Shown: piece after piece, positions 4,238 to 28,095 of the stretch
Layout: every line of letters begins with the position of its first letter
Numbering within the stretch: position 1 is the first letter of the stretch
Source of the DNA: Microtetraspora niveoalba
GTDB lineage: Bacteria; Actinomycetota; Actinomycetes; Streptosporangiales; Streptosporangiaceae
Length of the DNA: 64,000 bases
Assembly: GCF_001570405.1 (NCBI RefSeq)
Contig: NZ_BBYM01000040.1
Coordinates: 1 to 64,000, forward strand
Direction of reading: 5' to 3'
Notes under the pieces: generated by a model
What the model saw: the letters and a program-made list of their open reading frames with translations, nothing else
Database searches by the model: none
What the model was told of the DNA's origin: nothing
Program-made: the position numbers and the translations under genes

Positions 4238-6802
4238 ATGGATGACTACGAGCTCTACTGCCTGGCCGATTCGTTGTTCTATGACACCCCCGACCAGAAA
4301 AATGCTGAATCAACAGGTTTTTCGGTATTGTCGAGAGCGGTGCCGGCGGGTTGGCTCCATCAGGCGACGGACACGTGGATGTACTACACGCCGGCCGATG
4401 TCGCCGCTCTCCCCGAGCAGGGGTGGAAGATCCACGTGTCCGCCCGGCTGGCCGACGCGGAACGCGCCGTGCGTACGGTCTGGGACTACTGCGTGGCCGG
4501 GAACGTGGCCTTCAAGTTCCTTCGGAGCGAGTCCGTGCTGGTCATGGGCAACTCCAAGGCCGCGTCCCGCTCGTCAAGCGGCAAGCTGGTCACCATCTAC
4601 CCCCCGGACGAGACCCGGCTCGAGACCATCCTGACCGAGCTGGACGAGCTGCTGCGCGGGGTCGAGGGCCCGTACATCCTCAGCGACCTGCGGTACGGCG
4701 ACGGCCCGCTCTACGTGCGGTACGGCGGCTTCGCCGAGCGGCGCTGCCTGGACACGAGCGGCGAGATGGTGCTCGCCATCGAGGACGGCGAGGGCCGGCT
4801 CGTCCCCGACGTGCGCGGGTCCACCTTCGCGGTCCCGCCGTGGGTCGAGCTGCCCGCGTTCCTCGAACCCCACCTGACCGCGCGCAACGCCGTCACGATG
4901 GAGGGCCTGCCGTACGAGGTCGAGAGCGTGCTGCACTTCTCCAACGGCGGAGGCGTCTATCTCGGCCGGGACAGGGCGAGCGGGCGGCACGTCGTGCTGA
5001 AGGAGGCGCGGCCGCACGCCGGGCTCGACGCGGCCGGGCGCGACGCGGTCACCCGCCTGGATCACGAGCGGGACATCCTGCTGCGGCTCGCGGGCCTGGA
5101 CGCGGTGCCCGCCCTGCTCGACCACTTCACGGTCGGGGACCACCACTTCCTGGTCGAGGAGTTCGTCGACGGGAACCCGCTGCAGCGGCTCCTCGTCCAC
5201 CGCTATCCGCTCACGCGGACCGATCTCGCGCCCGACGCGCTGTCCGCGTACACGGAGTGGGCGCTGGACACGCTGACCCGGGTGGAGCTGGCGGTCGCCT
5301 CGCTGCACGGGCGCGGGGTGGTGTTCGGCGACCTCCACCCGAACAACATCCTCGTCACGGACGAGGACCGGGTGGTCCTGATCGACTTCGAGGTGGCCAC
5401 CTGGGCCGAGGACCGGGCCCGCCCGGCGCTCGGGCACCCGGCGTACGCCGCGCCGTCCGACCGGCTCGGCGTGGCGGGCGACGAGTACGCGCTGGCCTGT
5501 CTGCGGCTCGGCCTGTTCGCGCCGCAGACCACCATCATGGTGCCGATGCGTCCGGGCAAGGCGCGGCATCTGGCCCGGCTCGTCGCCGGCACGTTCCCCG
5601 TGCCCGCGGCGACCGTCGAGGACGCGGCCCGCACCATCGCGGGCGACCACGACATGGCGGAGCCGCCCGACCCCGGCCGGTGGCCGCCGATCCGCGACGC
5701 GCTGTGCCGTGCCGTGCTGGCCTCCGCCACCCCCGACCGGGACGACCGGCTCTTCCCGGGAGACGTGGCGCAGTTCCGTCCGGGCGGCGGGCTCGGCCTC
5801 GCGCACGGCGCGGCCGGGGTGCTGCACGCCCTGGCGGCGACGGGAGCGGGGCGGTTCCCCGACCACGAGGACTGGCTGCGCAAGCGCGCGGTCGCCCCCG
5901 AGCCCGGCAGCGCGCTCGGCTTCTACGACGGGCTGCACGGGGTCGCGCACGTCCTGGAGCGCCTCGGGCACCGCCAGGACGCCCTCGACGTCCTCGACAT
6001 CTGCCTCGGGGAGAGGTGGGAGGGGCTCGGGCCGGGCCTGTACTCGGGCCTGGCCGGCATCGGCCTGAACCTGCTGCACCTCGGCGAGGCGACCGGCGAG
6101 GCCGCGCTCCTCGACAGGGCGCGCGAGGTGGTCGGCGTGTGCGCCGAACGGCTCGGCGGCCCCGGCGACGTGCCGGACGTCAGCGGCGGCGCGAACCCCC
6201 GCGCGGGGCTGATGTTCGGCTCCTCCGGCCCGGCGCTGCTCTTCCTGCACGCGTACGAGCGGACCGGCGACGCCGGGCTGCTGGACCTGGCCGGGACGGC
6301 GCTGCGCCAGGATCTGCGGCGCTGCGTGCGGGCGGCGGACGGCTCGCTCCAGGTCAACCAGGGCTGGCGCCACCTGCCCTACCTGGACGAGGGATCGGTC
6401 GGCATCGCCCTGGTCCTGGCCCGGTATCTCTCCCACCGCCCGGACGAGGACCTCGCCCGCTCCCTGGACGATCTGCTGGCGGTCACCCGGTCCGCGTACT
6501 TCGTGCAACCGGGCCTGTTCACCGGCCGCGCGGGGGTGATCGCGGCGCTCGCGATGACCAGACGCTCGGATCCCGGGCTCGCCGCGCAGATCCGGGGGCT
6601 GCTCTGGCACATGCTCCCGTACGGCGAGGGCGTGGCGTTCCCCGGCGACGGGCTGCTGCGGCTCTCGATGGACTTCTCCACAGGAACGGCCGGCGTCCTG
6701 TTCGCCCTGGGCGCCGCGCTGCACGAGGAACCGGTGTTCCTCCCCTTCAGCCAGCCGCCTGGCCAGCGGCTCCCGTCCCAGCGATCAGGAAAGGAGGTGT
6801 AG
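4238..6802 (+). CDS. lanKC: Class III lanthipeptide synthetase LanKC
   Basis: This 854-residue enzyme phosphorylates Ser/Thr of a precursor peptide, eliminates phosphate and cyclises Cys onto the dehydro residues to give lanthionine or labionin. The N-terminal lyase domain (about 1-210) has the phosphate-binding signature NSKAASRSSSGKLVTIYP near 105-122. The kinase domain (about 225-460) has a Lys in VVLKEARP, the catalytic loop GDLHPNNIL near 365 and DFE near 382. The C-terminal cyclase (about 510-854) keeps the LanC-like barrel repeats (GLHGVAHVL, GLYSGLAGIGL, LFTGRAGVI) but shows no Cys-Cys-His zinc ligands, which separates class III from class IV. AGGGAG lies upstream of ATG 4238. The precursor gene begins 4 bases after its stop. 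Confidence 0.95.
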   Translation: MDDYELYCLADSLFYDTPDQKNAESTGFSVLSRAVPAGWLHQATDTWMYYTPADVAALPEQGWKIHVSARLADAERAVRTVWDYCVAGNVAFKFLRSESVLVMGNSKAASRSSSGKLVTIYPPDETRLETILTELDELLRGVEGPYILSDLRYGDGPLYVRYGGFAERRCLDTSGEMVLAIEDGEGRLVPDVRGSTFAVPPWVELPAFLEPHLTARNAVTMEGLPYEVESVLHFSNGGGVYLGRDRASGRHVVLKEARPHAGLDAAGRDAVTRLDHERDILLRLAGLDAVPALLDHFTVGDHHFLVEEFVDGNPLQRLLVHRYPLTRTDLAPDALSAYTEWALDTLTRVELAVASLHGRGVVFGDLHPNNILVTDEDRVVLIDFEVATWAEDRARPALGHPAYAAPSDRLGVAGDEYALACLRLGLFAPQTTIMVPMRPGKARHLARLVAGTFPVPAATVEDAARTIAGDHDMAEPPDPGRWPPIRDALCRAVLASATPDRDDRLFPGDVAQFRPGGGLGLAHGAAGVLHALAATGAGRFPDHEDWLRKRAVAPEPGSALGFYDGLHGVAHVLERLGHRQDALDVLDICLGERWEGLGPGLYSGLAGIGLNLLHLGEATGEAALLDRAREVVGVCAERLGGPGDVPDVSGGANPRAGLMFGSSGPALLFLHAYERTGDAGLLDLAGTALRQDLRRCVRAADGSLQVNQGWRHLPYLDEGSVGIALVLARYLSHRPDEDLARSLDDLLAVTRSAYFVQPGLFTGRAGVIAALAMTRRSDPGLAAQIRGLLWHMLPYGEGVAFPGDGLLRLSMDFSTGTAGVLFALGAALHEEPVFLPFSQPPGQRLPSQRSGKEV

Positions 6803-16288: not shown

Positions 16289-16365
16289 CCACCACGCGGG
16301 CTCCTCGCGCCGAGTGGCGGGGACCTGTCGCAGGTGGTCGGCCCAGAGGGGATCGAGAGGGCCGC

Positions 16366-16424
16366 GGGGTTCGGCCGGGGATTCGGCCGGGGATTCGGCC
16401 GGGGATTCGGCCGGGGGTTCGGCC
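16366..16424. repeat. 12-bp direct repeats (GGGGATTCGGCC)
   Basis: About five copies of GGGGATTCGGCC with small changes lie between the ene-reductase (ends 16288) and the acyl carrier protein gene (ends 16437, minus strand). The stretch 16289-16436 holds no convincing gene. Convergent transcripts meet here. Confidence 0.8.
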
Positions 16425-16436
16425 GCACCGGGCGGT

Positions 16437-16793
16437 TCAGGCCGTGGCGGCCGGCCGTTCCGGGGGCGCGCTCACCCGGCCACCGGCCAGAAGTTCGGTG
16501 AGGTGGGCGGCGAGGGCGTCGACCGTCGGGCGGTCCCAGGTCAGCGTCGGCTCGACCAGCAGGCCGACGGTCTCTTCGATGTCGACGCACAGGCCGAGCG
16601 CGTGGATCGACTCCCACCCGTAGGCGCGGAGCTTGACCCCCGGATCGATCTCGGCGGGAGACCGTTCGAGGTAGTGGGCCACCCGCTCGGTCAGCCACCG
16701 GCGCACATCATTGCCGGAACGGTCGGAACGGTCGGAACGGTCGGGGTGGTCGGGGTGGTCGGACACGGCTCTCCCTGATCGGTTCTCCGGCAT
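16437..16793 (-). CDS. Stand-alone acyl carrier protein
   Basis: A 118-residue protein with a PP-binding domain at about 27-105. The attachment site is Ser62 in YGWESIHALGL, close to the usual (D/E)S-x2-(A/M)-L pattern. The N-terminal tail DHPDHPDRSDRSDRSG comes from 9-bp repeats and is probably disordered. The ATG follows directly on the stop codon of the acyl-AMP ligase gene, so the two are coupled. The carrier should receive the acyl chain from that ligase as a phosphopantetheine thioester. A phosphopantetheinyl transferase is not present in the window. Confidence 0.85.
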   Translation of the reverse strand: MPENRSGRAVSDHPDHPDRSDRSDRSGNDVRRWLTERVAHYLERSPAEIDPGVKLRAYGWESIHALGLCVDIEETVGLLVEPTLTWDRPTVDALAAHLTELLAGGRVSAPPERPAATA

Positions 16794-18452
16794 TCACGGA
16801 ACGGTTTCCAGCAGGTCGTGCAGCGCGGGGTCCACCTCGGCGTGCAGCGGCGTGAGGCTCCCGCCGAGGAACAGGTCCCTCATGTGACGGCGGCGGAGCT
16901 TGCCGCTGGTGGTCTGCCGCACCACGCCACGGGCCACCAGCAGCAGGCTCAGCGGGACGGCGAACTCCCTCGACACCAGATCCATGACCTGCTCGGCCGT
17001 CTCACCGAGGTACGCCGAGCCTCCTCGGCGTACCTCCTGGACGAGGACGACGTGTTCCCCGCCGTCGGAGCGGCGGACGCCGAAGGCGGCGCTCCGGCCG
17101 GCGACGGGGTTCGCCCGGGACGCCGCCTCCTCCAGATCCTGCGGATAGAGGTTGCGGCCGTTGACGACGATGACGTCCTTGATCCGCCCTGTCACATAGA
17201 GCTGCCCGTCCAGGAGGAACCCCAGGTCGCCCGTGCGCAACCAGCGGCCCCCGCCCGCGCGGAAGGTGGCCCGGGTCTCCTCGGGGCGACCCCGGTACCC
17301 GAGGGCCACGCTCGGGCCCGCCACCCAGATCTCCCCGATCCCGCCGTCGGGCACGGGGACGCAGCCGTCCGGGTCGACGATCCGCAGGTCGAGCCCGGCG
17401 GCCGGGCCGCACGCCACCAGGGGAACTCCTGCGGGGTCGGGAATCGCCTCGTGCCGTTCCAGCGCGGAGGGGTCGAACCCGCGTACGGTCACGTCCTGCC
17501 CTCGCGGCACGCAGCTGACCATCAGGGTGCACTCCGCGAGGCCGTAACCGGGATTCCACGTGGTCGGGCGGAAGCCGGCGGGCGCGAATCTGCGCTCGAA
17601 GCCGGCGAGCGTGGCGGCTTTGATCGGCTCGGCTCCGCTGAGGGCCATGGCCAGGGTGGACAGGTCGAGGCCGGCGAGTTGCTCGTCGGTGACCCGGCGG
17701 GTGCACCAGGAGTATCCGAAGTCTGGAGAAACGGTCCAGTCCGCGCCGTACCGGCTGATCAGTTCCAGCCAGCGCACAGGCCGCGCGACGAACGCGTTCG
17801 GCGACATGAACACGAGGTCGGCGCCCGTGTGGAGCGCTTGCAGTTGGAGGCCGACCAGGCCCATGTCGTGGTAGTGGGGCAGCCATCCGGCCAGCCGTCG
17901 TGGCGGTTTCCCCGCCGCGAGGGCCCGGAACAACCCCAGGTTGTGCAGCAGGTTGCCGTGCGAGACCTCGACACCGCGAGGTTCGCTCGTCGAACCGGAG
18001 GTGTACTGCAGGTACGCGACGGTGTCACCGCCCAGGGCCGGCGGGGCCCAGGCGCCGGGATCGGCGGAGGGAACGACGACGCGGGCCCCGAGGTCGGAGA
18101 GTCCGGACGCGTGCGCGGCATCGGTCAGGACCAGGCCGGCGCCCGCGTCGCGCAGCAATGCCCGCACACGCCTCATGTGAGGGGCGCCCGCGTCCGGCAG
18201 CGGCGCGGGGATCGCCGGCACCCGGGCGTAGAGGCAGCCGAGGAACGCGACGGTGAAGTCGAGCCCGGCCGGATAGAGCAGCAACGCCGGCTGGTCGGTC
18301 ACGCCGAGTCCGGTGAGCCACACGGCGACGGCACGGGCTCGCCGATCCAGCTCGGTGAAAGTGAGCCGGATCGGCTCACCGTTGTCCTGGACGAAGACCA
18401 TCTGCCGCTCGGCGCTGAGGCGGCCCCGGATGTGCGCCACGAAATCGGTCAT
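16794..18452 (-). CDS. Fatty acyl-AMP ligase (FadD32/FAAL type)
   Basis: A 552-residue adenylate-forming enzyme. Core motifs in order are YTSGSTSEPRGVEVSHGN (P-loop, A3), WLPHYHDMGLVG, GYGLAECTLMVS (A5), GEIWVAGPSVALGYRG, RTGDLGFLLDGQLYVTGR (A7/A8) and the end TTSGKLRRRHMRD. The HYHDMGLVG text and the VTVRGFDPSALERHEA insertion are typical of FAALs, which make acyl-adenylates for transfer to an acyl carrier protein rather than to CoA. ATG 18452 overlaps the stop of the reductase gene (ATGA). The longer frame starting at 18479 is unlikely. The chain length used is unknown. Confidence 0.92.
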   Translation of the reverse strand: MTDFVAHIRGRLSAERQMVFVQDNGEPIRLTFTELDRRARAVAVWLTGLGVTDQPALLLYPAGLDFTVAFLGCLYARVPAIPAPLPDAGAPHMRRVRALLRDAGAGLVLTDAAHASGLSDLGARVVVPSADPGAWAPPALGGDTVAYLQYTSGSTSEPRGVEVSHGNLLHNLGLFRALAAGKPPRRLAGWLPHYHDMGLVGLQLQALHTGADLVFMSPNAFVARPVRWLELISRYGADWTVSPDFGYSWCTRRVTDEQLAGLDLSTLAMALSGAEPIKAATLAGFERRFAPAGFRPTTWNPGYGLAECTLMVSCVPRGQDVTVRGFDPSALERHEAIPDPAGVPLVACGPAAGLDLRIVDPDGCVPVPDGGIGEIWVAGPSVALGYRGRPEETRATFRAGGGRWLRTGDLGFLLDGQLYVTGRIKDVIVVNGRNLYPQDLEEAASRANPVAGRSAAFGVRRSDGGEHVVLVQEVRRGGSAYLGETAEQVMDLVSREFAVPLSLLLVARGVVRQTTSGKLRRRHMRDLFLGGSLTPLHAEVDPALHDLLETVP

Positions 18453-19510
18453 TCCGGCAGCCCCTCGCGCACGTACCACGAGACCAGCCGGTCGAGGACC
18501 TCGGCGGTGACGGCCGGCGGCGCCGCCAGGTCGCGCCAGGCGAAGTCATAACGGTGGCGGAAGTAGGTCGCGGTGTATTTGGCCCGCATGTTGACCACCG
18601 CCTCGAACCGGTTGAAGGGCACGTCCCGGATCTGCTCCGGCGTGGCCGGGACGAGCTCGATCGGCAGCCGGGCGTTGACCACCTCGAACAGATCGCGTAC
18701 GGGGACGGTCCGCCCGTTCACCACGTGGAGGATCGGACGGTCGAGATCCGCGGCGGCGAGCGAAAGCAGTCTGGAGACCGTCGTGTCGATGGGGGTCAGG
18801 TGGAGATCGGCGTCCGGATGGCAGGGCAGGCGGACCCGTTCGCCGGGGTTGCGCCGGGCGAAGAAGGCCATCACCCGGAGGAAGTCGTACAGGCCGTAGT
18901 CGGTGAGCGCGCGGCCGGTGCGGGAGTGGCCGACCATCACGCCCAGCCTGGCCACCAGAACGGCGCCCTCGCCGGCCGACCGCGACGATGCCAGCGCGAT
19001 CTCCGCTTCACGTTTGGAGTACTCGTAGAAGTTCCGGAACCTGTCCGGCGAAGCGGGCACGGGCCAGTCCTCGGGCACCGGGCCTTCCGTGTCGAGCCCG
19101 CACTGGTAGGCCGTGCCGATGTGGATGTAGCGCGACCCAGGACGGGCCCGCCGCTCGTAGGTGGCCAGGGCGTTCGCGGAACCCGCCACGTTCACGTCCA
19201 GCAGTTCCGCCTCGCGGCGGGGGAAGAAGGTGACGAGCGCCGCGGTGTGCCAGTAGGTGCAGGGCTCGGCGAAGACCTCGGCCACCGGAAGGCCGAGGTC
19301 CGGCTCGTCCAGCGCCAGCCGGCGCACCCGGAGCCGGTGCGCCGGAGACTCGTCGAAGCCGAGGCAGCGCAGCGCGTCCGCGACCCGGCGGCGCACCACC
19401 TCCGCGGAGGCGCGGGCCAGGGCGATCACCTCGTCGCCCCGGGCCAGCAGGGCGCCGATCAGATGGGAACCCACGAACCCGTTGGCTCCGTCGACCACCT
19501 GAACATTCAC
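18449..19510 (-). CDS. Thioester reductase-like NAD(P)-dependent protein
   Basis: This 353-residue extended short-chain reductase of the male-sterility/NAD_binding_4 group has the Rossmann loop GANGFVGSHLIGALLARG, the catalytic YxxxK in FYEYSKREAE, and a C-terminal part DRLVSWYVREGLPE. In lipopeptide and carboxylic acid reductase systems, related domains release an acyl-carrier thioester as aldehyde or alcohol with NADPH. It is first in the minus-strand unit reductase-ligase-carrier, which suggests reductive release of an acyl chain as the pathway end. That pathway is inferred. It diverges from the EF-hand gene across 75 bp. Confidence 0.85.
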   Translation of the reverse strand: MNVQVVDGANGFVGSHLIGALLARGDEVIALARASAEVVRRRVADALRCLGFDESPAHRLRVRRLALDEPDLGLPVAEVFAEPCTYWHTAALVTFFPRREAELLDVNVAGSANALATYERRARPGSRYIHIGTAYQCGLDTEGPVPEDWPVPASPDRFRNFYEYSKREAEIALASSRSAGEGAVLVARLGVMVGHSRTGRALTDYGLYDFLRVMAFFARRNPGERVRLPCHPDADLHLTPIDTTVSRLLSLAAADLDRPILHVVNGRTVPVRDLFEVVNARLPIELVPATPEQIRDVPFNRFEAVVNMRAKYTATYFRHRYDFAWRDLAAPPAVTAEVLDRLVSWYVREGLPE

Positions 19511-19585
19511 CGCAGAACCTTCCCATCGGAGGTAACGGAACGTAAAGTATCAGCCACATTCCGTGGTCGAAACTCAGGAGAGTTC

Positions 19586-20149
19586 ATGCTCAATGACCTG
19601 CAGCTGCGCAAGATGGCCCATCTCTTCGCACTCCTGGACGTGGACGACGACCGGGTCATCGACAAGATGGACTACACCGCCTCGGCCGACCGGCTGGTGA
19701 ACGCGTTCGGCTTCGCGCCGGGCTCGGCCGAGTCGCGGCGGGTCCGGGAGCGGTACGCGAGGCTGTGGGACGAGGTGACGCTCCCCATGGACATCGACGG
19801 AGACGAACGCGTCGATCTCACCGAGTTCACCGCCGGGTTCGACCAGTTCGTCACGCAGCCCGACGAGGGCTACCGCAGGCATGTCGCGCCGGTCGCCGAC
19901 GCGTTCTACGACCTGATGGACACCGACGGGGACGGACGGATCACCCGGACCGAGTACCTCCGTATGGCCGGAAGCGCGTTCCGGATGTCGGAGGCGAACA
20001 GCCTCTCCGCGTTCGAGCGTCTCGACCTGGACGGCAACGGCTCGCTGAGCAGGCAGGAACTGCACATCGCGAACGAGCAGTTCTTCCGCAGCCCCGACCC
20101 GGACGCCCACGGCAACTGGCTGTTCGGCCCGCTCCCGCCGCGGGGCTGA
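19586..20149 (+). CDS. Four-EF-hand calcium-binding protein (calerythrin-like)
   Basis: A 187-residue acidic, soluble protein with four EF-hand loops: DVDDDRVIDKMD, DIDGDERVDLTE, DTDGDGRITRTE and DLDGNGSLSRQE. Loops 2 to 4 have full Asp/Asn/Glu ligand sets; loop 1 ends in Asp instead of Glu. The arrangement resembles the calerythrin/sarcoplasmic calcium-binding group seen in actinomycetes, which buffer or sense calcium. CAGGAG at 19575-19580 is the ribosome binding site. It diverges from the acyl cassette and may share its promoter region; any functional tie is unknown. Confidence 0.92.
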   Translation: MLNDLQLRKMAHLFALLDVDDDRVIDKMDYTASADRLVNAFGFAPGSAESRRVRERYARLWDEVTLPMDIDGDERVDLTEFTAGFDQFVTQPDEGYRRHVAPVADAFYDLMDTDGDGRITRTEYLRMAGSAFRMSEANSLSAFERLDLDGNGSLSRQELHIANEQFFRSPDPDAHGNWLFGPLPPRG

Positions 20150-20217: not shown

Positions 20218-20910
20218 TCAGCGGGGGTCGGCGGCGCCGCCGGCGGCGGACCGTCCGGTCAGGGACGGGTAGCGGACCCTCGCGAGGTCGCCGCCCGTCT
20301 CCGGCCACAGCCAGCCGTGCTCCAGCGAGATCCTGATCGCCTCGACGCGGGTGCGGGCGCCGACCTTCGGGAGAATGCGGCACAGGTAGTTCCGTACGGT
20401 GCCGGGCGAGAGATAGAGCCGGTCGGCGATCTCGGTCACCGTGGATCCCTCGGCGGCGACCTGGAGCACGTCCAGTTCGCGCGAGGTGAGCGGGTTCTCC
20501 GGGGCGTTGAGCGCGGCGAGGGCCAGTTCCGGGTCGATCACCCGTTCCCCGCGGGCCACCCTGCGTACGCAGTCGACGAACTGCTGGGCCGAGGCGTCCT
20601 TGACCATGAAGCCGCTCGCCTTCGCCCCGAGCGCCCGACGCAGCGCCGCGGGGGTGCCGCGGCCGGTGAGGATCACGGTTCTGCATTCGGGCATCCGTTC
20701 GTGCAGCTCGGACGCGGCCGTCAGGCCGTCCACGCAGGGGAGGTGGATGTCGATGAGCGCGACGTCGGGACGGCTCTCGCGGGCCAGCGCGACGATCTCG
20801 CCGCCCTGGCCGGTCTCGGCGACGACCTCCAGGTCGTCCTCCTTGGAGAGCAACGCCACGAGGGCCGATCGGACGAGGTGCATGTTCTCCGCTAGCAGTA
20901 GACGGATCAA
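20218..20910 (-). CDS. Orphan NarL/LuxR-type response regulator
   Basis: A 230-residue regulator. The receiver begins IRLLLAENMHLVRSALVALL; the phosphoacceptor Asp is in VALIDIHLP and the conserved Lys in GFMVKDA, but the usual acidic pair is Glu-Asn (LAEN). The C-terminal LuxR helix-turn-helix reads LTSRELDVLQVAAEG, then VTEIADRLYLSPGTVRNYL. I place the start at TTG 20910, because AAGGAG lies 7 bases before it and the protein then begins exactly at the receiver domain; the longer frame from 20973 adds an Arg-rich tail. No sensor kinase gene is nearby. Such orphan regulators include RamR/AmfR of SapB-type clusters, so a link to the lanthipeptide genes is possible but unproven. Confidence 0.85.
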   Translation of the reverse strand: MIRLLLAENMHLVRSALVALLSKEDDLEVVAETGQGGEIVALARESRPDVALIDIHLPCVDGLTAASELHERMPECRTVILTGRGTPAALRRALGAKASGFMVKDASAQQFVDCVRRVARGERVIDPELALAALNAPENPLTSRELDVLQVAAEGSTVTEIADRLYLSPGTVRNYLCRILPKVGARTRVEAIRISLEHGWLWPETGGDLARVRYPSLTGRSAAGGAADPR

Positions 20911-21482
20911 GCCCGTTCTCCTTATGCGCCTTCGCGAGGTCGGTTGCACGCGTTTTCTCCCCCCGGCCCGCACAGCTTTGCCGGCCCTCCGGGGGCCACC
21001 CCCACTCCTTTCGGAAATATAGCGTTACCGTATGCCAGGGCATTGAAATATCGCGATCTAGCCGGATTGTTTCTCCAGCCCCACCAAGATCAGACGCTGG
21101 GACGCTCGCACCGGTTTACCGGTGGATGGGACCATTCCCGCACATCGGCGCCACCGTGACCCGTTGATCCACGCCACCATCCAACAGACTCGGACAATTC
21201 ACACTCAATTCCACAAACCACAGAGAGCGGGATATATCTGCGTTTATGCCGCTATTTCAGCGGCAATTTGGAACTCCAGAGCGCGTGTCCCCCGCGTGAA
21301 TTCCGCCCGGCGCAATACGACCACCGGGCCCTCGCGCGGCCCCGTACGAACCCGCGAGGGCCCGGTGATCGGCCCTTCTCCGCACCGTGCCGGCCGAGCC
21401 GGACGCCGCCCGCGCGGCGCCTTCGCCGCGGCCGTCCGGGCCTTCCCCGCCACGATCCGCGGCGGCTCGGCCGCGCGCTCTC
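20911..21482. other. Intergenic region without recognised gene
   Basis: About 570 bp between the response regulator start and the C45 gene end. The part 21010-21290 is clearly lower in GC than its surroundings (AT-rich words such as GAAATATAGCG and GGGATATATCTGCG) and shows no convincing frame. The right end carries the terminator listed separately. It may hold promoter elements of the response regulator. Confidence 0.5.
21323..21366 (-). terminator. Hairpin terminator of the importer operon
   Basis: A perfect 14-bp stem, ACCGGGCCCTCGCG (21323-21336) with CGCGAGGGCCCGGT (21353-21366), has a 16-base loop. It lies 117 bp beyond the stop of the last operon gene on the minus strand. Confidence 0.75.
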
Positions 21483-22628
21483 TCAGCCGGGGGTGACCGT
21501 CGTCCAGGTGGACGGGCGGGCCGAGCAGGGGGTGCCGTCGTGCAGCATGAGGCGGCCCGCTCCGGGCTCGACCACGATCGTGGCCAGGGACGCCCAGCGC
21601 GTCCCGAGCCGTCCGTCGGCGGGCGCGTGGCAGCAGACCTCCGCGCCGTCGCCCGGGTGGGCGGTGAGCAGCGCGGCGAGGTCGCCCGCGTCGTCGAAGG
21701 GGTGTCCGTCCCGGATCCTCCCGGCGAGCAGGCGTTCCCGGTCGTACGTCTCCGGCTCGGCCCTCCCCCGGAACTCGCCCTCCGCGAGCGCCGGGGCGAC
21801 GAAGTGGTTGGTGTGCACGAGCCAGCCCGCACCATCGGAGCCGCCGACACCGTCGGAGCCGCCCTGATCGTCCGAGCCGTGCGGGCCCTCCGGGGTGACC
21901 GGGCCCGGCGGGATCACGGCGGCGCCCGCCGGGCTCAGCTCGACGCACGCCGCCCGGTCCGCCGTCACGACGGTCACGACGGTGGAGGCGGACACCGGCG
22001 CGGCGGTCAGGATGGCGACCGCCTCCGCGTACGACCGCGCGCCGCCGAGGACCCTGCGCGCGACGAGGTGCACCGGCACGCCGTCGGCGCCGTCGTCCAC
22101 GTGTCCGAGGATGTTGAACAGCACGCCGACCCCGGCCTCGTTGAGGCCGATCTTCGCCAGGATGCCGTGCTCGGTGATGCCGGTGAAGGCCACCTCGTCG
22201 CCGCGTACGGTCTGGACGTGCCAGCCGTCGGCCAGCTCCTCGTGCCAGTCCCACGTCTGTCCGCCGAGGGTGCGGTCGCCGACGCGCACCACGGTCGAGC
22301 ACTCCCCCGCGCGCGGCGTCCCCGCCACGGCGAGGATCTCGGTGCGCGCGTTGAGCGCGGCGGCGACCCACAGCGGCACGCCCGCGCCGTCGGCGACGCC
22401 CTCGATCTCGGCGGCCAGCTCGGGCGCCCACGCGCGCGTGGCCGCGAGGGTCCGCAGAGCGAGCGCCGGCACGTCGAGCGTCACGCCCCGGGCCGCCGCG
22501 GCGACCTCGAAGAGCTGCGAGTACGTGCGCCACCCCCGCGCGATCTCGGGGGCGAGCCTCCGCCCGCGCTCGTGCCCGCGTCGCCTCGGGTCGGTCTCCT
22601 CGACCAGCAGGTGCGTACGGGAGGTCAC
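21483..22628 (-). CDS. C45 family autoproteolytic acyltransferase/hydrolase
   Basis: A 381-residue Ntn-hydrolase of the acyl-CoA:6-aminopenicillanate acyltransferase (AAT) family. The predicted self-cleavage and nucleophile site is Gly-Glu-Cys110 in AGECSTVVR; the following LGGQTWDWH and LNEAGVGVLFNILG text and the WLVHTNHFV block are family landmarks. Fungal AAT swaps penicillin side chains, while bacterial relatives mostly hydrolyse or transfer N-acyl groups. GTG 22628 overlaps the stop of the upstream ATPase gene (GTGA), so it is the last gene of the importer operon. It probably acts on an imported N-acylated amino acid, peptide or lactam. No signal peptide is seen, so it is cytosolic. Confidence 0.85.
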   Translation of the reverse strand: MTSRTHLLVEETDPRRRGHERGRRLAPEIARGWRTYSQLFEVAAAARGVTLDVPALALRTLAATRAWAPELAAEIEGVADGAGVPLWVAAALNARTEILAVAGTPRAGECSTVVRVGDRTLGGQTWDWHEELADGWHVQTVRGDEVAFTGITEHGILAKIGLNEAGVGVLFNILGHVDDGADGVPVHLVARRVLGGARSYAEAVAILTAAPVSASTVVTVVTADRAACVELSPAGAAVIPPGPVTPEGPHGSDDQGGSDGVGGSDGAGWLVHTNHFVAPALAEGEFRGRAEPETYDRERLLAGRIRDGHPFDDAGDLAALLTAHPGDGAEVCCHAPADGRLGTRWASLATIVVEPGAGRLMLHDGTPCSARPSTWTTVTPG

Positions 22629-23467
22629 GCCTCCACCTCCCGGACGTCCGCGTCGCCGGAGAGCCGGGGCCGCCATCCCGGCCTGGGCGCGCTGTCGCGC
22701 AACAGCACGGTGTAGGGGTGTCGCGGATGGTCGAGCACCTGGTCGGTGCTCCCCCGTTCGACGATCCGGCCCTGCCGCATGACGACGACCTCCTCGCTCA
22801 CCTGCCGGACGACGGACAGGTCATGGGTGATGAACAGGTATGTGAGCCGGCGGTCCCGCCGGATCTCGGCCAGCAGGTTGAGGACCTGCGCCTGCACGGA
22901 CACGTCCAGCGCGGCGACGGCCTCGTCCAGGACGATGACGCGCGGCTCCGCGGCGAGGGCCCGCGCGATGGCGACCCGCTGCTGCTGGCCGCCGCTGAGC
23001 TCGCCGGGCAGCGCCCGCGCGTGCGCGGGCCGCAGGCCGACCTGGCCGAGGAGCTCCTCGATCCGGCGGCGCGCCTCGGCCCCGGTGACCCGGTGGTGGA
23101 CGGCCAGGACCTCCCCGATGGCCGCCTCGACGGTGCGGCGGCGGTTCAGCGAGCCGTTCGGGTCCTGGAAGACCATCTGGATGTCGCGGGCACGGGCCCG
23201 CCGCTCGGCACGACGCGGCCGCCGTGCCACGGGACGGCCGGCCAGGACGACGTCTCCGCTGTCCGCGCTTTCGAGCCCGACCAGGACGCGGGCGAGGGTG
23301 GTCTTGCCCGAGCCCGACTCGCCGACGACGGCGAGGCAGCTCCCGTCGGCGACGGTGAGGCTGACGTCGTCGAGCGCGTGGACGGTGCGGCGGGAGCCGC
23401 CCCGGCCGACGTCGAACCGTTTGCACAGCCCGCTGATCTCGATGACGTTCTCCGCGGTGGCGTTCAC
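22625..23467 (-). CDS. Peptide ABC importer ATPase (DppF/OppF-like)
   Basis: A 280-residue ATP-binding subunit: Walker A GESGSGKTT, Q-loop QMVFQDPNGSLNRRRT, signature LSGGQQQRVAIARAL, Walker B VIVLDEAVAALD and the switch His in FITHDLSVV. The Q-loop and the tail HPRHPYTVLLRDS are typical of the dipeptide/oligopeptide (DppF) class. It begins at GTG 23467 inside the stop of the partner ATPase. With the two permeases and the lipoprotein it forms a complete importer. Confidence 0.92.
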   Translation of the reverse strand: MNATAENVIEISGLCKRFDVGRGGSRRTVHALDDVSLTVADGSCLAVVGESGSGKTTLARVLVGLESADSGDVVLAGRPVARRPRRAERRARARDIQMVFQDPNGSLNRRRTVEAAIGEVLAVHHRVTGAEARRRIEELLGQVGLRPAHARALPGELSGGQQQRVAIARALAAEPRVIVLDEAVAALDVSVQAQVLNLLAEIRRDRRLTYLFITHDLSVVRQVSEEVVVMRQGRIVERGSTDQVLDHPRHPYTVLLRDSAPRPGWRPRLSGDADVREVEA

Positions 23468-24489
23468 GCCCGCACCTCCGTTTCACCTTCGCCGCCCGGC
23501 GTGCCCGCGGGTGCACCCGCCAGCTCGGCGGCGAGCTCTCCGGCACGCAGGCAGCGGGTGGCGCGTCCGGCGTCGTGGACCAGCGCGGGTTCGTCCCGCT
23601 CGCACCGCGGCTCCGCCCACGGGCAGCGGGCCGCGAACGCGCAGCCTCCCTCCACCTCGTACGCGGCGACGGGCCGGCCGGGGATGACGGGAAGCTCCAC
23701 CGCCCTCGCGGTGATGCTCGGCCGCGAGTCGAGCAGCAGCCGCGTGTACGGGTGCCGCGGGGCGGCGTGGAGCTGCTCGGGCGTGGCGATCTCGACGATC
23801 TCCCCCGCGTACATCACGGCGATCCGGTCGCAGACGGCGGACGCGAGTTCGAGGTCGTGGGTGACGAAGAGCATGGCCATCCCGTGCTCGCGGCGCTGCC
23901 GGTCGAGGATCGCCATGACCTCGGACTGGGTGGTGACGTCGAGCGCCGTGGTGGGCTCGTCGGCGAGCAGCAGCCGGGGCGTGCTCGCCACCGCGGCGGC
24001 GATGACGACGCGCTGCAGCATCCCGCCGGAGAGCTGGTGCGGATAGGACGCCATGCAGCGGTCCACATCCGTGATCCCGACCCGCGCGAGGAGGTCGCGC
24101 GCCCGGCGGGTGGCCTCCTCGGCGCTCTCACCGCGCGCGTCCCGGAGCCCTTCGACGAGGTAGCGGGAGACGCGGAGCACCGGGTTCAACGCGGCCCGCG
24201 GGTTCTGGCTGATCATCGTGACGGCTTCGGCGCGCACCCGGCGCAGCGCGGCGGCGCCGAGCGTCCGCACGTCCTCGCCGTCGAGCAGCACCCGCCCGGT
24301 CACCCGGGCGCCGGCCGGCTCGGTGCGCAGGACGGTGCGCAGCGTCATCGACTTGCCCGACCCGGACTCGCCGACGAGGCCGAGGGCCTCGCCGGGGGCG
24401 AGGGACAGCGAGACGCCCCGCAGGAGTGACCGGTCGCCGCGCCTGGAGGGCAGGTCGAGACGGACGTCGTCGAGTTCGAGGACGTTCAC
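23464..24489 (-). CDS. Peptide ABC importer ATPase (DppD/OppD-like)
   Basis: A 341-residue ATP-binding subunit with Walker A GESGSGKSMT, Q-loop MISQNPRAALNP, signature LSGGMLQRVVIAAA, Walker B LLLADEPTTALDVT and the switch His in VTHDLELA. The C-terminal oligopeptide-transporter extension is present, with three Cys in CAFAARCPWAEPRC; in related DppD proteins this Cys-rich region can bind an iron-sulfur cluster. It starts at GTG 24489, overlapping the permease stop, and overlaps the second ATPase at its end. Confidence 0.92.
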   Translation of the reverse strand: MNVLELDDVRLDLPSRRGDRSLLRGVSLSLAPGEALGLVGESGSGKSMTLRTVLRTEPAGARVTGRVLLDGEDVRTLGAAALRRVRAEAVTMISQNPRAALNPVLRVSRYLVEGLRDARGESAEEATRRARDLLARVGITDVDRCMASYPHQLSGGMLQRVVIAAAVASTPRLLLADEPTTALDVTTQSEVMAILDRQRREHGMAMLFVTHDLELASAVCDRIAVMYAGEIVEIATPEQLHAAPRHPYTRLLLDSRPSITARAVELPVIPGRPVAAYEVEGGCAFAARCPWAEPRCERDEPALVHDAGRATRCLRAGELAAELAGAPAGTPGGEGETEVRA

Positions 24490-25352
24490 GCCCGGCCACC
24501 CGCCTTCCGGCCGCCGAGCCGCTCACCGATCACGCTGAACGCGGCGACGGCGACGACGATGCACACGCCGGCCAGCACGCTCTGCTCCGGGTGGCCCTGG
24601 AGCAGCGAGTCCTTCCCCTGCGACACCATCAGCCCCCAGTCGGCGGTCGGGGGCTGGACGCCGAGGCCGAGGAACGACAACGCGGCGAGGTCGATCATCG
24701 CGTACCCGAAGTTGATCGCGGCGCCGGTGAGGATCTGCGGCGCGATGTTGGGCAGGATGTGCCGCACGCTGACGACGAGCCCGGACAACCCCTGCAACTC
24801 CGCCGCCTGGACGTACGCGAGCCGCCGTTCGCGCAGGGCGACGCTGCGCAGCACGCGGGCGGTGTAGGGGACGTACGCGACGGCGAGGGCGACGGTGGCC
24901 TGCCCGAGACCGGTCCCGAACACCGCGACGGCGAGGATCGCCAGCAGCAGGTTCGGGAAGGCGAACAGCAGGTCGAGCACCCGGCCGACGAGCGCGTCGA
25001 CGTACCTGCCGAACCAGGCGGCGACGAGCGCGAGCAGCGCGCCGCCCGTCCCGGCGAGCAGCACGACGACGGCGGCGCCGAGCAGGCTGGTCCGCGCGCC
25101 GTACAGCAGGCGGGCGAGCAGGTCGCGGCCGGACTGGTCGGTGCCGAGCAGGTGCTCGGCGCTCGGGCCCTGGTAGCGCTCGAGGACGCTGCCCACGGCC
25201 GGGTCGTGGGATGTGATCAACGGGGCGCACAGCGCGGCCACCGTGATCAGCGCGACGACCGCGAGCGCGGCGATGCCCAGCGGGCCGAGCCGCTCGGCCA
25301 GGTCGCCGCCGCGCCGCCGTACGGCCGGGCGTGCGAGGGTCTGCGCGGTCAC
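24486..25352 (-). CDS. Peptide ABC importer permease (DppC-like)
   Basis: A 288-residue inner-membrane permease with six hydrophobic segments. The N-terminal cytoplasmic part is followed by LITSHDPAVGSV and HLLGTDQSGRDLLARLLYGARTS in short view, the classic DppC signature, and the EAA-type loop for ATPase contact occurs around YVQAAELQGLSGL. GTG 25352 overlaps the stop of the DppB-like gene. It forms the channel with that partner. Confidence 0.92.
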   Translation of the reverse strand: MTAQTLARPAVRRRGGDLAERLGPLGIAALAVVALITVAALCAPLITSHDPAVGSVLERYQGPSAEHLLGTDQSGRDLLARLLYGARTSLLGAAVVVLLAGTGGALLALVAAWFGRYVDALVGRVLDLLFAFPNLLLAILAVAVFGTGLGQATVALAVAYVPYTARVLRSVALRERRLAYVQAAELQGLSGLVVSVRHILPNIAPQILTGAAINFGYAMIDLAALSFLGLGVQPPTADWGLMVSQGKDSLLQGHPEQSVLAGVCIVVAVAAFSVIGERLGGRKAGGRA

Positions 25353-26299
25353 GCGCTCTCACCTCCGAGTTGGACGCGCGGGTCGATCACCGCGTAGAGG
25401 ATGTCGATCACCAGGTTGACCACCCCGAAGACCGCGACCAGCAGGAGCGCGACCGCCTGTACGACGGCGAAGTCCTTCTGCTGGACCGAGTTGATGAGCA
25501 TGGCTCCGACGCCGTCGAGGGTGAAGGCGTGCTCGACGACGGCGGCCCCGGCGACGAGGGCGGCGATGTTCACGCCGACGATCGTGGTGACGGGCAGCAT
25601 GGCGTTCCGGAGGATGTGCCGGCGCGCCACGACCCGCCACGGGACGCCGCGCGCCAGCGCGACGGAGACGTGCTCGGCCTCGCGTTCCTCCACAACGGCG
25701 GTGCGGGTGATGCGGGCGACCACCGCGGCGGCCGGGAGCGCGAGCGCCACGGCGGGCAGCGTCAGGTGTTCGACGCGGCCCGCGAACCCGGATCCGGCCC
25801 CGAAGACGGGGAACCAGCCGAGCGTCACGGAGAAGACGCTCATGAGCAGGACGGCGGCGAAGAACGTGGGGACGGCGAAGCCGACGCTCGACCCGAGCAG
25901 CACGCCGGTGTCGAACGCCCCGCCCCGCAGCCCGGCGAGCGCTCCGGCCACGACGCCGAAGACCACGATCAGCACGGCGGCGTACAGGGTCAGCCAGAGG
26001 GTCGTCGGGATGCGGGACGCCAGGAGCGAGGCGACGTCCTGGCGGGTGGTGAGCGACTCGCCGAGGTCGCCGGTGAGCACGCCGCCGAGCCAGTTCCAGT
26101 AGCGGATCAGGAACGGGTCGTCCAGGCCGTACTGCGCCCGGATGGAGGCGAGGACCTCGGGGCTGACGGTCCGTCCCTGGACGAGGAAACTCTCGGGCGT
26201 GCCGGGTGCGGCGTACATCGCCGAGAAGACGAGGAAGCTGGAGATGAGGAGGGTGGCGGCCAGCGCGCCGAGCCGCCGGAGTACGAAGCGCAGCAACAA
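25349..26299 (-). CDS. Peptide ABC importer permease (DppB-like)
   Basis: A 316-residue permease that begins LRFVLRRLGALAATLLISSF, as DppB proteins do, with six membrane segments. The periplasmic loop has DPFLIRYWNWLGGVLTGDLG, and the EAA loop lies near ARGVPWRVVARRHILRNA. The start is read as TTG 26299 (or the next TTG at 26296) with GGAGG just upstream; no ATG fits. It lies 53 bp downstream of the binding-protein gene, the only real gap in the operon, and overlaps the DppC-like gene. Confidence 0.9.
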   Translation of the reverse strand: MLLRFVLRRLGALAATLLISSFLVFSAMYAAPGTPESFLVQGRTVSPEVLASIRAQYGLDDPFLIRYWNWLGGVLTGDLGESLTTRQDVASLLASRIPTTLWLTLYAAVLIVVFGVVAGALAGLRGGAFDTGVLLGSSVGFAVPTFFAAVLLMSVFSVTLGWFPVFGAGSGFAGRVEHLTLPAVALALPAAAVVARITRTAVVEEREAEHVSVALARGVPWRVVARRHILRNAMLPVTTIVGVNIAALVAGAAVVEHAFTLDGVGAMLINSVQQKDFAVVQAVALLLVAVFGVVNLVIDILYAVIDPRVQLGGESA

Positions 26300-26352
26300 C
26301 GCCTCCGATCAGGAGGTGGGGGGCGCGTCGCCGCGCCCCGGGTCGGTCATGG

Positions 26353-27987
26353 TCACGCCGCGCCGAGGTCGGCGGCCCAGGGGTAGTAGAGGTAGACGAA
26401 CGAGGCCGGGACCCCGGTGATCCCCTTGCGGAGGAACAGCCTGACCGACGGCGCGACGATCGGGATCCAGGGCATGCGCTCGGTCACCTTCGCCTGCAGC
26501 TCCGCGACGATCTTGGCCCGCTCGGTCTCGTCCAGCGTTCCGGCGGCCTGCTCGATGAGGCGCTGCGTCTCCGGGTCGGAGTGCCCGTCGAAGTTCTGCG
26601 ACCCGCCCTCGGCGGCGATCGTGCGCAGGAAGGCGAGCGGGTCGGGGACGTCCATGTAGTTGGTCGTCATGAACCCGTCGTATCCGGCGCGCGCCTTGGC
26701 GTCGGAGAAGAACGCCCCGTACTGCGCGCTCGGGACGCCCTTGGGCTGGATGGTGAGGCCGAGCTCGCGGGCGGCGTTGGACATCTCGGACAGGATGTCG
26801 GCGTAGAACTGACGCTCGCTCGGGTAGGCGACGGTGATCGTGGCGTTCCCGAGGTCGGCTCCCGCGATGAGCTTCTTCGCCTCGTCGAGGTTCTTCTTCG
26901 TGTCCGGCAGGGCGTCGTACGCGGGACCGAACACACCGTCCCCGTACGTCCAGCCGCCGCGCGGCACGAGCGACCGGGGCACCTGGGCGGTGCCGGCGAA
27001 CACGGTCGCCGCGATGGCCTCCCGGTCGGTGGCGAGCGCGAGCGCGCGGCGCACCGCCGGGTCGCCGAGCGGGCCGCTCCCGGTGCTGATGACGGCGACC
27101 AGCTGCAGGGATTTACCCAGGTACAGCGTGCCGTTGGCGGAGTTCGAGAGCCGGTCCACCGCGTCGATCGGCACGTCGTACGAGCCGTCGATGGCGTTGG
27201 TCTCCAGGGCGCTCGCGATCGCGCCGGGGTCGACGATGAACCGCAGGTCGACCTGCTTCGTCCTGGCCCGCCGCGACGCGTCCCAGTACGCGTCGTTGCG
27301 CAGCATGGTGATCGAGGACCCCTTCTGCCACGCCGAGAACGTGTAGGGGCCGGTGCACATGACGCCGCCCTCGGGGGTGCCGTACTTGCCGCCCGCCTTC
27401 TCGCGCTGCGCGCGCTGCACGACCACGCCGATCGGGGTGGCCATGTACGAGTTGAGCGTGGCGTCCGGCTTCTTCAGGGTGACGGTGACCTCGTGGTCGC
27501 CGGTCTTCTCGACGCTCGTCATGTTGCCGGTGATCTGGTCGGAGGCCCAGTAGCTGCCCTCCTTGGGGTCGAGGTGGCGGCGCAGGCTGAAGACGACGTC
27601 GTCGGCGGTCATCGGCTGTCCGTCCCAGAAGCGCACGTCGTCCCGCAGGGTGAACACCCAGGTCTTCTGGTCCTTCGTCTCCACCTTCTCGGCGAGGTTG
27701 GGCTTCACCGTGTAGTCGGGGTCCAGCCGCGTCAGCCCCTCGCAGAGGTTCGCGACGACGGTGTTCTCGGGGTAGTTGAACGCCTTGATCGGGTCCAGTG
27801 ACGCGGGCTCGCCGAAGGGCAGGTTCCAGGTCGCCTTGTCGAGGTCCCGCTGCGCGGCGGGGGTGGTCACCAGGAGGTCGTCGAGCTTACGGTCGGCCGC
27901 CTTCGGGGTGGCCGGGGCACCGCCGCCGCACGCGGCGAGCCCGAGGCTCAGCGAGGCGGCCAGCGCCGCCTTCGCGCAGATACGCAT
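26353..27987 (-). CDS. Peptide-type ABC substrate-binding lipoprotein (SBP_bac_5)
   Basis: A 544-residue extracellular lipoprotein. The signal sequence ends in the lipobox LAAC with Cys20, so it is anchored outside the membrane. The family signature follows: EPASLDPIKAFNYPENTVVANLCEGL, split here as EPASLDPIKA and NLCEGLTRLDPDY, then WTFTLR-like WVFTLRDDVRFWDGQPMTADD in part. It captures a peptide or peptide-like ligand for the two permeases. ATG 27987 has GGAGAACGAG before it; the longer frame to 28071 has no signal peptide at its start. It is first in the operon and diverges from the lacI gene across a palindromic operator. Confidence 0.92.
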   Translation of the reverse strand: MRICAKAALAASLSLGLAACGGGAPATPKAADRKLDDLLVTTPAAQRDLDKATWNLPFGEPASLDPIKAFNYPENTVVANLCEGLTRLDPDYTVKPNLAEKVETKDQKTWVFTLRDDVRFWDGQPMTADDVVFSLRRHLDPKEGSYWASDQITGNMTSVEKTGDHEVTVTLKKPDATLNSYMATPIGVVVQRAQREKAGGKYGTPEGGVMCTGPYTFSAWQKGSSITMLRNDAYWDASRRARTKQVDLRFIVDPGAIASALETNAIDGSYDVPIDAVDRLSNSANGTLYLGKSLQLVAVISTGSGPLGDPAVRRALALATDREAIAATVFAGTAQVPRSLVPRGGWTYGDGVFGPAYDALPDTKKNLDEAKKLIAGADLGNATITVAYPSERQFYADILSEMSNAARELGLTIQPKGVPSAQYGAFFSDAKARAGYDGFMTTNYMDVPDPLAFLRTIAAEGGSQNFDGHSDPETQRLIEQAAGTLDETERAKIVAELQAKVTERMPWIPIVAPSVRLFLRKGITGVPASFVYLYYPWAADLGAA

Positions 27988-28070
27988 CTCGTTCTCCGAA
28001 CTCGGGGGGAGTGAACCCGTTGGGGCCGTTTGAGCAGGCCATGGGCGCGATAGGCAGCGACCATACAGCA

Positions 28071-28095
28071 CAAAACGTTTTAGAAAAAGGTTTTG
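28071..28095. promoter_or_regulatory. LacI-type operator, divergent promoter
   Basis: AAAACGTTTT (28072-28081) is a perfect 10-bp palindrome with the central CG typical of LacI/GalR operators. The wider CAAAAC (28071-28076) and GTTTTG (28090-28095) also form an inverted pair. It is the only AT-rich spot between the lipoprotein gene (27987) and the regulator gene (28114), so it should control both. Confidence 0.75.

What the first reader, a model, noticed from the sequence alone, without database searches (positions are those of the whole stretch)
16437..20149. Minimal activate-carry-reduce lipid cassette opposite a calcium-binding protein
A free acyl-AMP ligase, a free carrier protein and a thioester reductase-like protein are coupled by overlapping codons. 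Together they could turn a free fatty acid into an aldehyde or alcohol without a polyketide or peptide synthetase. The divergent four-EF-hand protein is an odd partner.
Basis: inference. Interest (0 to 1): 0.55.

Follow-up and report, generated by a model that had tools for sequence, protein, structure and literature searches.

The report
Four-gene acyl-reduction module with calcium-binding protein
Some soil actinobacteria carry a tiny self-contained gene set that probably turns a fatty acid into an aldehyde, always paired with a calcium-binding protein whose structural relatives include holders of small greasy molecules, which hints at calcium-controlled handling of the product.

Summary
On the minus strand lie a thioester-reductase-like SDR (TR, 18449-19510), a fatty-acyl-AMP-ligase-like enzyme (FAAL, 16794-18452) and a free carrier protein (ACP, 16437-16766 or -16793). 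On the plus strand, 75 bp away and divergent, lies a four-EF-hand protein (EFH, 19586-20149). The same four genes in the same arrangement occur in 25 of 25 genomes found with a TR at least 60% identical: 12 Streptosporangiaceae, 13 Pseudonocardiaceae. EFH is the best conserved member (71% mean identity between the families; TR 62, FAAL 60, ACP 52). Apart from common transporter and regulator families, flanking genes are shared only within a genus, so this is a self-contained module. Best reading: a split, CAR/TamA-TamH-like activate-carry-reduce pathway to an aldehyde (or alcohol). The EFH model has the sarcoplasmic-Ca-protein/photoprotein fold (as coelenterazine-binding and okadaic-acid-binding proteins do), and some paralogues neighbour terpene, acyl-CoA or FAAL genes. 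I therefore propose that EFH is a Ca2+-responsive binder of the lipid substrate or product; a plain Ca2+ sensor is a serious rival. No activity was tested. The searches listed found no published account of the module. New variant of a known kind.

The parts
19586..20149 (+). EFH: four-EF-hand protein, 187 aa, of the calerythrin / sarcoplasmic Ca-binding protein type
   Evidence: Pfam EF-hand; AlphaFold model pLDDT 90.7; best fold matches juvenile hormone diol kinase 7pjd Z 24, calexcitin Z 23, coelenterazine-binding protein Z 20; present in 25 of 25 modules
19637..19672 (+). EF-hand loop 1 (DVDDDRVIDKMD); positions 1,3,5,9,12 invariant
   Evidence: 25 of 25 orthologues; coordinates checked
19790..19825 (+). 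EF-hand loop 2 (DIDGDERVDLTE)
   Evidence: positions 1,5,12 invariant in 25 of 25, position 3 D (21) or N (4)
19919..19954 (+). EF-hand loop 3 (DTDGDGRITRTE), canonical
   Evidence: positions 1,3,5,12 invariant in 25 of 25
20024..20059 (+). EF-hand loop 4 (DLDGNGSLSRQE), canonical
   Evidence: positions 1,5,12 invariant in 25 of 25, position 3 D (23) or N (2)
20111..20131 (+). C-terminal tail motif GNWLFGP, resembling the tail of Bombyx juvenile hormone diol kinase (GNYIFG)
   Evidence: GNW-x-FGP kept in 25 of 25; aligned to 7pjd; coordinates
19511..19585 (.). 75-bp divergent intergenic region with a ribosome-binding-site-like stretch on each side and a short conserved core; presumably holds both promoters
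   Evidence: alignment of 25 intergenic regions; promoter role inferred
18449..19510 (-). TR: thioester-reductase-like extended SDR, 353 aa, GTG start; T133, Y162 and K166 stand where MxaA has the Thr, Tyr and Lys of the SDR triad
   Evidence: PF07993 77.2 bits over cut-off 20.1; best PDB match MxaA 4u7w E 2.7e-13 with these residues and GHSRTG aligned; invariant in the alignments; that they are catalytic is recalled
16794..18452 (-). FAAL-like acyl-AMP ligase, 552 aa, ATG start overlapping the TR stop
   Evidence: PF00501 183.8 bits; best PDB matches 7r7f E 7e-107, FadD23, FadD32, 3pbk
16437..16793 (-). ACP: free carrier protein, 118 aa from ATG 16793 or 109 aa from the likelier GTG 16766; phosphopantetheine Ser codon at 16608-16610
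   Evidence: PF00550 33.6 bits over cut-off 20.8; Ser invariant in 25 of 25; GTG and Ser checked

Best explanation
A sporadically distributed, self-contained four-gene pathway. FAAL uses ATP to make an acyl-AMP from a free (fatty) carboxylic acid and loads it on the phosphopantetheine arm of the dedicated ACP (holo-ACP made by a transferase encoded elsewhere). TR binds the acyl-ACP and, with NAD(P)H, releases it as an aldehyde (possibly on to the alcohol). It works like a carboxylic acid reductase or TamA-TamH taken apart into separate proteins. EFH, divergent from the same short intergenic region, is made together with the enzymes; it binds Ca2+ and, by its fold and by the neighbours of its paralogues, most likely binds the lipophilic substrate or aldehyde and holds it or hands it over in a Ca2+-dependent way. 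Shown: gene order, conservation, intact motifs, predicted EFH fold. Inferred: every enzymatic step, the shared promoter, the EFH ligand and the role of Ca2+.
For: Same four genes in 25 of 25 modules, gap 71-85 bp, TR-FAAL overlap in 24 of 25. EFH more conserved than the enzymes; pairwise distances of the four genes correlate, r 0.86-0.98 overall, 0.71-0.90 within families. No flanking gene but common transporter and regulator families is shared across genera. FAAL. ACP Ser invariant. TR motifs and MxaA alignment; a TR relative (44% identical) in G320 lies beside NRPS genes, which fits a lineage that handles carrier-bound substrates. EFH fold. Several proteins of this fold bind small molecules (passages of PMC5754374, and PMC9917264). 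Precedent for the chemistry: TamA + TamH turn C12 acid into C12 aldehyde and on to the amine (passages of PMC9594044).
Against: No assay. The NCBIfam thioester-reductase model gives 72.4 bits against a cut-off of 213.35, FAAL subfamily cut-offs are not reached, and one model named long-chain-fatty-acid--CoA ligase (NF005850) scores 303.0 bits, close to the FAAL models. The AlphaFold model of TR was poor (pLDDT 55) and was not used. Nereis SCP and calerythrin share the EFH fold and are not shown here to bind a lipid; no ligand cavity was computed. Regulators (histidine kinase, LuxR type) are also among the neighbours of EFH paralogues. Nothing in the module uses the aldehyde further.
Confidence: 0.5

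Rival explanations
1. Same enzymatic pathway, but EFH is only a Ca2+ sensor or buffer that switches the enzymes on or off by protein-protein contact, and binds no lipid.
For: All four Ca loops conserved in 25 of 25; the Streptomyces coelicolor calcium-binding protein 3aka/3akb, linked to calcium-mediated regulation in its entry title, has the same fold at Z 17.5-18.3; histidine kinase (3) and LuxR-type (2) genes are among 114 paralogue neighbours scanned.
Against: The best fold matches include small-molecule binders, and several paralogues lie beside terpenoid and acyl genes; this is circumstantial.
Confidence: 0.33
2. The SDR is not a thioester reductase but modifies the acyl chain on ACP (for example a keto reduction), and the acyl group leaves in another way.
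For: Epimerase (56.3 bits) is not far below NAD_binding_4 (77.2); TIGR01746 cut-off not reached.
Against: Thioester-reductase model and MxaA structure are the best matches, with the GHSRTG region and the Thr, Tyr and Lys aligned.
Confidence: 0.1
3. The module makes a starter or side chain for a synthetase encoded elsewhere in the genome.
For: All 19 genomes examined hold 9 to 53 condensation-domain matches; Sinosporangium has NRPS pieces about 7 kb from the module and M. fusca condensation domains about 34 kb away on the same contig.
Against: No synthetase is shared next to the module across genera in the flanks held; in Microbispora catharanthi most flanking genes scanned look like housekeeping genes.
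Confidence: 0.05
4. Chance neighbours in one genome.
For: None found.
Against: Arrangement kept in 25 of 25 genomes of two families with different flanks.
Confidence: 0.01

Closest known systems
TamA-TamH of tambjamine YP1 biosynthesis (Pseudoalteromonas tunicata; PMC9594044, passages seen)
   Same: A fatty acid is adenylated, loaded on an ACP and reduced to the aldehyde without a PKS/NRPS step
   Different: TamA fuses ligase and ACP; TamH fuses a transaminase to a reductase related to acyl-ACP reductases with a putative catalytic Cys; part of a larger alkaloid cluster. Here the parts are separate, the reductase has the SDR Tyr/Lys, and an EF-hand protein belongs to the set
Carboxylic acid reductase, CAR (recalled)
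   Same: Adenylation, carrier and reductase activities in one path from acid to aldehyde
   Different: CAR is one polypeptide; here three, with a FAAL-type ligase
Stand-alone FAAL + ACP pairs such as JamA-JamB (PMC11837247, passages seen)
   Same: Free FAAL beside its own ACP
   Different: Those feed PKS/NRPS lines; no word beginning with 'reductase' was found in the main text of that review (words such as ketoreductase are not counted)
MxaA thioester reductase (PDB 4u7w)
   Same: Best PDB sequence match of TR; Thr, Tyr, Lys align
   Different: MxaA TR is a domain of an NRPS (recalled); here the TR is free
Calerythrin / sarcoplasmic Ca-binding proteins, juvenile hormone diol kinase 7pjd, coelenterazine-binding protein 2hps, okadaic acid binding protein 4wri
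   Same: Fold over nearly the whole chain (Z 24.0 to 14.3) and, for 7pjd, the C-terminal tail
   Different: None is known to me as partner of an acyl-reduction cassette; the ligand of EFH, if any, is unknown

Membership tests
Fatty acyl-AMP ligase (FAAL) | Adenylate-forming core, closer to FAALs than to CoA ligases | tested here: met
   7r7f 7e-107 (listed as polyketide synthase; that it is a FAAL domain is recalled), FadD23 5e-80, 3pbk Fatty Acyl-Adenylate Ligase 2e-68; malonyl-CoA synthetase 4fuq only 2.8e-23. FAAL-named models 282-359 bits; against it, NF005850, named CoA ligase, 303.0, the next CoA-ligase model 139.4
Fatty acyl-AMP ligase (FAAL) | Curated NCBIfam cut-off of a named FAAL subfamily | tested here: not met
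   NF004509 358.9 of 775, NF006624 355.6 of 600; these are cut-offs for subfamilies, not for the whole family
Fatty acyl-AMP ligase (FAAL) | FAAL-specific insertion and CoA rejection (described in PMC8460268, passages) | tested here: inconclusive
   Alignment to 7r7f runs through the region without a large gap; no structure made; CoA rejection needs an assay
Phosphopantetheine carrier protein | PF00550 over cut-off and conserved Ser | tested here: met
   33.6 against 20.8 bits; Ser in 25 of 25
Thioester reductase (R domain) | NAD_binding_4 domain with Thr-Tyr-Lys and the GxSxTG region (motifs recalled) | tested here: met
Thioester reductase (R domain) | NCBIfam TIGR01746 curated cut-off | tested here: not met
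   72.4 of 213.35 bits; Lentzea orthologue 69.8
Thioester reductase (R domain) | Reduces a carrier-bound acyl thioester | not testable with these tools
   Needs an enzyme assay
Carboxylic acid reductase (CAR) | Adenylation, carrier and reductase in one polypeptide | tested here: not met
   Three separate genes in 25 of 25; so it may work like a CAR but is not one
TamA-TamH | Transaminase fused to the reductase | tested here: not met
   TR is 353 aa and matches SDR-type families only
SCP/calerythrin-type EF-hand proteins | Four EF-hand fold of the SCP type | tested here: met
SCP/calerythrin-type EF-hand proteins | Ca2+ binding | not testable with these tools
   Loop residues conserved; binding needs an experiment
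Small-molecule-binding EF-hand proteins (CBP, OABP2, photoproteins) | Internal cavity occupied by a lipophilic ligand | not tested
   Fold similarity only; no cavity computed

The most novel reading that the evidence does not exclude
EFH is a bacterial counterpart of the coelenterazine-binding protein: a Ca2+-gated carrier that captures the fatty aldehyde (or its acid) made by a dedicated split reductase, shields the cell from it, and gives it up to the next partner when Ca2+ rises. It would be one branch of a wider actinobacterial family of calcium-controlled lipophile carriers paired with terpene synthases, acyl-CoA oxidases and FAALs.
Probability: 0.28. Interest if true: 0.75.

Novelty: new variant of a known kind. 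Interest (0 to 1): 0.56.

Why it matters
It would be a minimal route from acid to aldehyde with separate, easily studied parts. It also gives bacterial calerythrin-type EF-hand proteins, whose role is to my knowledge largely unknown, a concrete metabolic partner, so that a calcium effect on lipid metabolism in bacteria becomes testable with four small proteins.

Tried and rejected
A mycobactin-type side-chain set (MbtM ligase + MbtL carrier) was considered and dropped: the MbtM model scores only 231.9 of 621 bits and no further gene is conserved beside the module.

Plasmid spread: no TR match at E 1e-20 in 72,556 plasmid records.

The structure of TR was predicted with mean pLDDT 55 and not used for any fold search.

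The MFS, old-yellow-enzyme, MarR, C45 acyltransferase, ABC importer and LuxR-type regulator genes around the window module were considered as parts and rejected: none is a conserved companion. MFS, ABC ATPase and LacI-type relatives do occur near some other modules (clusters c17, c18, c22), at varying places. The LuxR-type gene near the M. glauca module is 30% identical.

PKS/NRPS in the flanks: one search lists only 25 of 143 Pfam families and one search lists only part of its matches, so neither alone excludes a synthetase. (tblastn with KS, A and C domains, positive controls included, in the whole window and the 15-20 kb loci held; L073 holds less on one side) is the test used. It found NRPS pieces in Sinosporangium (L007 18142-19887), a free KS 5-8 kb away in 4 Microbispora genomes (L066=L020, L024, L022, L025) and a second ANL enzyme in Saccharothrix tamanrassetensis (L072 15219-16430); the other adenylation hits are the modules' own FAAL or the control. 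Further out, condensation domains lie about 34 kb from the M. fusca module.

EFH paralogue survey: 60 loci were fetched from the more than 100 matches, mostly from the top of the list, not at random. 119 nearest neighbours were picked and 114 scanned: I left out six (one each of L096, L116, L139 and L113, both of L097) and put in L113:7428-8843, an ORF that overlaps the EFH call. 84 genes four places away served as control. The loci are not phylogenetically independent, so the counts are suggestive only. HMMs of TR and ACP hit 0 of 60 of these loci, FAAL hit 1 of 60 (L148).

Papers: searches. None of the listings named an EF-hand gene with a FAAL-ACP-reductase set (one search listed 25 of 109 papers, 8 of 10, 8 of 41). 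The library holds only open-licence papers. Seen as passages: PMC11837247, PMC8460268, PMC9594044, PMC9917264, PMC5754374; all others as search listings with starts of abstracts.

Full report
What is there. The window lies on a 77-kb contig of an 8.47-Mb genome, in the same genus as genomes whose contigs match Microtetraspora fusca and M. glauca in length. Between 16437 and 20149 lie four genes. ACP (PF00550, 33.6 bits), FAAL (PF00501, 183.8 bits) and TR (NAD_binding_4, 77.2 bits) are on the minus strand in the order TR-FAAL-ACP; EFH (EF-hand families) is on the plus strand, divergent from TR with 75 bp between the start codons. TR and FAAL overlap by ATGA. FAAL and ACP do not overlap: an ATG abuts the FAAL stop (TGAATG), and a GTG 27 nt further in, preceded by GGGAGA, gives a start close to that of relatives.

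Is it a unit? TR searched in 297 genomes of the order: 12 have a TR 83% or more identical (the window's own included), two more have distant ones (44% and 35%). EFH searched with the same settings: 97 of 297 have some relative at E 1e-20, but only those 12 have one at 83% or more; the next best is 45%. A pattern-based scan of the 84,980-species collection gave 17 loci: nine from Microtetraspora, Microbispora and Sinosporangium, seven from Lentzea, Allokutzneria, Umezawaea and Saccharothrix, and one unrelated 31% match. Taxonomy: Microtetraspora in Streptosporangiales/Streptosporangiaceae, Lentzea and Saccharothrix in Pseudonocardiales/Pseudonocardiaceae (the other genera recalled). A search of the family around Lentzea gave 12 of 297. 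A sample of 394 genomes of the class gave 3 at E 1e-40, all in the window's family. Together 25 distinct genomes carry a TR at least 60% identical, and 25 of 25 carry EFH, TR, FAAL and ACP in the same arrangement; EFH-TR gap 71-85 bp; TR-FAAL overlap 4 nt in 24 of 25 (the exception, G683, has an early stop in TR); the ACP start codon was not resolved in 3. Mean identity between the two families: EFH 71.3, TR 62.3, FAAL 59.9, ACP 51.7%. Pairwise distances of the genes correlate. The intergenic region keeps ribosome-binding-site-like stretches on both sides and a short core. One same-genus genome (G001) lacks TR, so the module is not a fixed part of the genus.

Is it part of something larger? 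Clustering of 286 predicted ORFs (module and flanks) in 19 genomes: besides the four module genes, ORFs shared across genera are MFS (c17), ABC ATPase (c18) and LacI-type (c22) families and ORFs antisense to the module; the rest is confined to Microbispora, Microtetraspora or Lentzea. Pfam on 102 flanking ORFs of 12 contexts shows transporters, hydrolases and regulators as the commonest families, with 25 of 143 families listed. tblastn with KS, A and C domains found NRPS pieces near 1 of 25 modules and a free KS 5-8 kb off in 4 Microbispora genomes; in M. catharanthi the genes between include MoxR, DUF58 and VWA genes and a methyltransferase. No KS lies on the window's contig (43 of 43 matches listed). 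TR has no match among 72,556 plasmid records.

The enzymes. FAAL: the best solved structures are FAAL-type (7r7f 7e-107, FadD23, FadD32, 3pbk), against 2.8e-23 for malonyl-CoA synthetase. In NCBIfam the FAAL models lead, but one model named CoA ligase (NF005850) reaches 303.0 bits and no subfamily cut-off is met. ACP: the Ser in the G-x-[D/E]-S motif is invariant in 25. TR: best PDB match MxaA (2.7e-13), with Thr133, Tyr162, Lys166 and the GHSRTG region aligned and the three residues invariant; it stays below the curated TIGR01746 cut-off (72.4 of 213.35 bits). Its nearest relative outside the module found (G320, 44%) lies beside genes with A, PCP and C domains. Reduction of an acyl-ACP is inferred.

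EFH. All four Ca loops keep positions 1, 5 and 12 in 25 of 25; position 3 is D or, in a few, N. The model (17 sequences; best pLDDT 90.7, the five models 69.8-90.7) matches juvenile hormone diol kinase 7pjd (Z 24.0, rmsd 2.0, 181 aligned), calexcitin (Z about 23), Nereis SCP (22.4), coelenterazine-binding protein (20.2), the S. [quoted passage not shown] the calmodulin rows shown are at 12.7 or less (Foldseek order). A review passage notes that OABP2, berovin, CBP and calexcitin share a fold and bind small molecules (PMC5754374); for CBP, Ca2+ exposes the coelenterazine cavity and the ligand is used in a complex with luciferase (PMC9917264). A shared fold does not show a shared function.

EFH paralogues. 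Of 60 paralogue loci, 6 lie beside a terpene synthase (L113, L122, L128, L130, L136, L154), 5 beside acyl-CoA oxidase/dehydrogenase-type genes (L098, L100, L103, L104, L111; L101 as well by clustering), 3 beside a molybdopterin oxidoreductase (87-89% alike, so not independent), 1 beside a FAAL (L148, convergent, 54 bp) and 1 beside an acyltransferase-carrier gene (L114). BLAST with one terpene synthase, acyl-CoA oxidase, acyl-CoA dehydrogenase and molybdopterin query found none among 84 control genes four places away; terpene synthase is not among the families listed for the control (25 of 91 shown). Glutamine synthetase (4 of 114), histidine kinase (3) and LuxR-type (2) genes appear too. This is a lead, not proof.

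Mechanism. FAAL activates an acid, ACP carries it, TR releases it as an aldehyde; TamA-TamH shows that this chemistry works on C12 acid (PMC9594044, passages). EFH is probably co-expressed and, I propose, holds or delivers the lipophilic partner under Ca2+ control (about 0.5 for the whole picture; the enzymatic half alone about 0.75; EFH as an integral part about 0.95; these are judgements).

Novelty. The parts are known kinds. A free FAAL + ACP + TR set with a constant EF-hand partner, kept in two orders outside any conserved synthetase cluster, I did not find described in the searches named under Tried and rejected; the 2025 FAAL review shows no word beginning with 'reductase' in its main text. 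Hence a new variant of a known kind.

Noticed in passing
L095-L154 (60 loci of EFH paralogues): Calerythrin-type EF-hand genes lie beside terpene synthases (6 of 60 loci), acyl-CoA oxidase/dehydrogenase-type genes (5), a FAAL (L148) and an acyltransferase-carrier gene (L114).
   Followed up: partly
window 4238-6802 (+): RamC-like lanthipeptide synthetase (RamC_N, kinase, LANC-like).
   Followed up: no
window 16715-16762: Two 9-bp tandem arrays inside the N-terminus of this ACP; the repeat peptide DHPDHPDRSDRSDRS is absent from the other 24 orthologues aligned.
   Followed up: partly
window 16360-16425: 12-bp tandem array (GGCCGGGGATTC, 5.4 copies) just downstream of the ACP stop.
   Followed up: no
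window 21483-28071 (-): C45-type autoproteolytic acyltransferase/hydrolase, two ABC ATPases, two unscanned genes that I take for permeases, and a family-5 solute-binding protein: looks like a peptide uptake operon.
   Followed up: no
window 20218-20973 (-): NarL-type response regulator convergent with EFH; not conserved with the module.
   Followed up: partly
G683 (L094): TR of this module has an in-frame TGA and ends about 9 residues earlier than its relatives.
   Followed up: no
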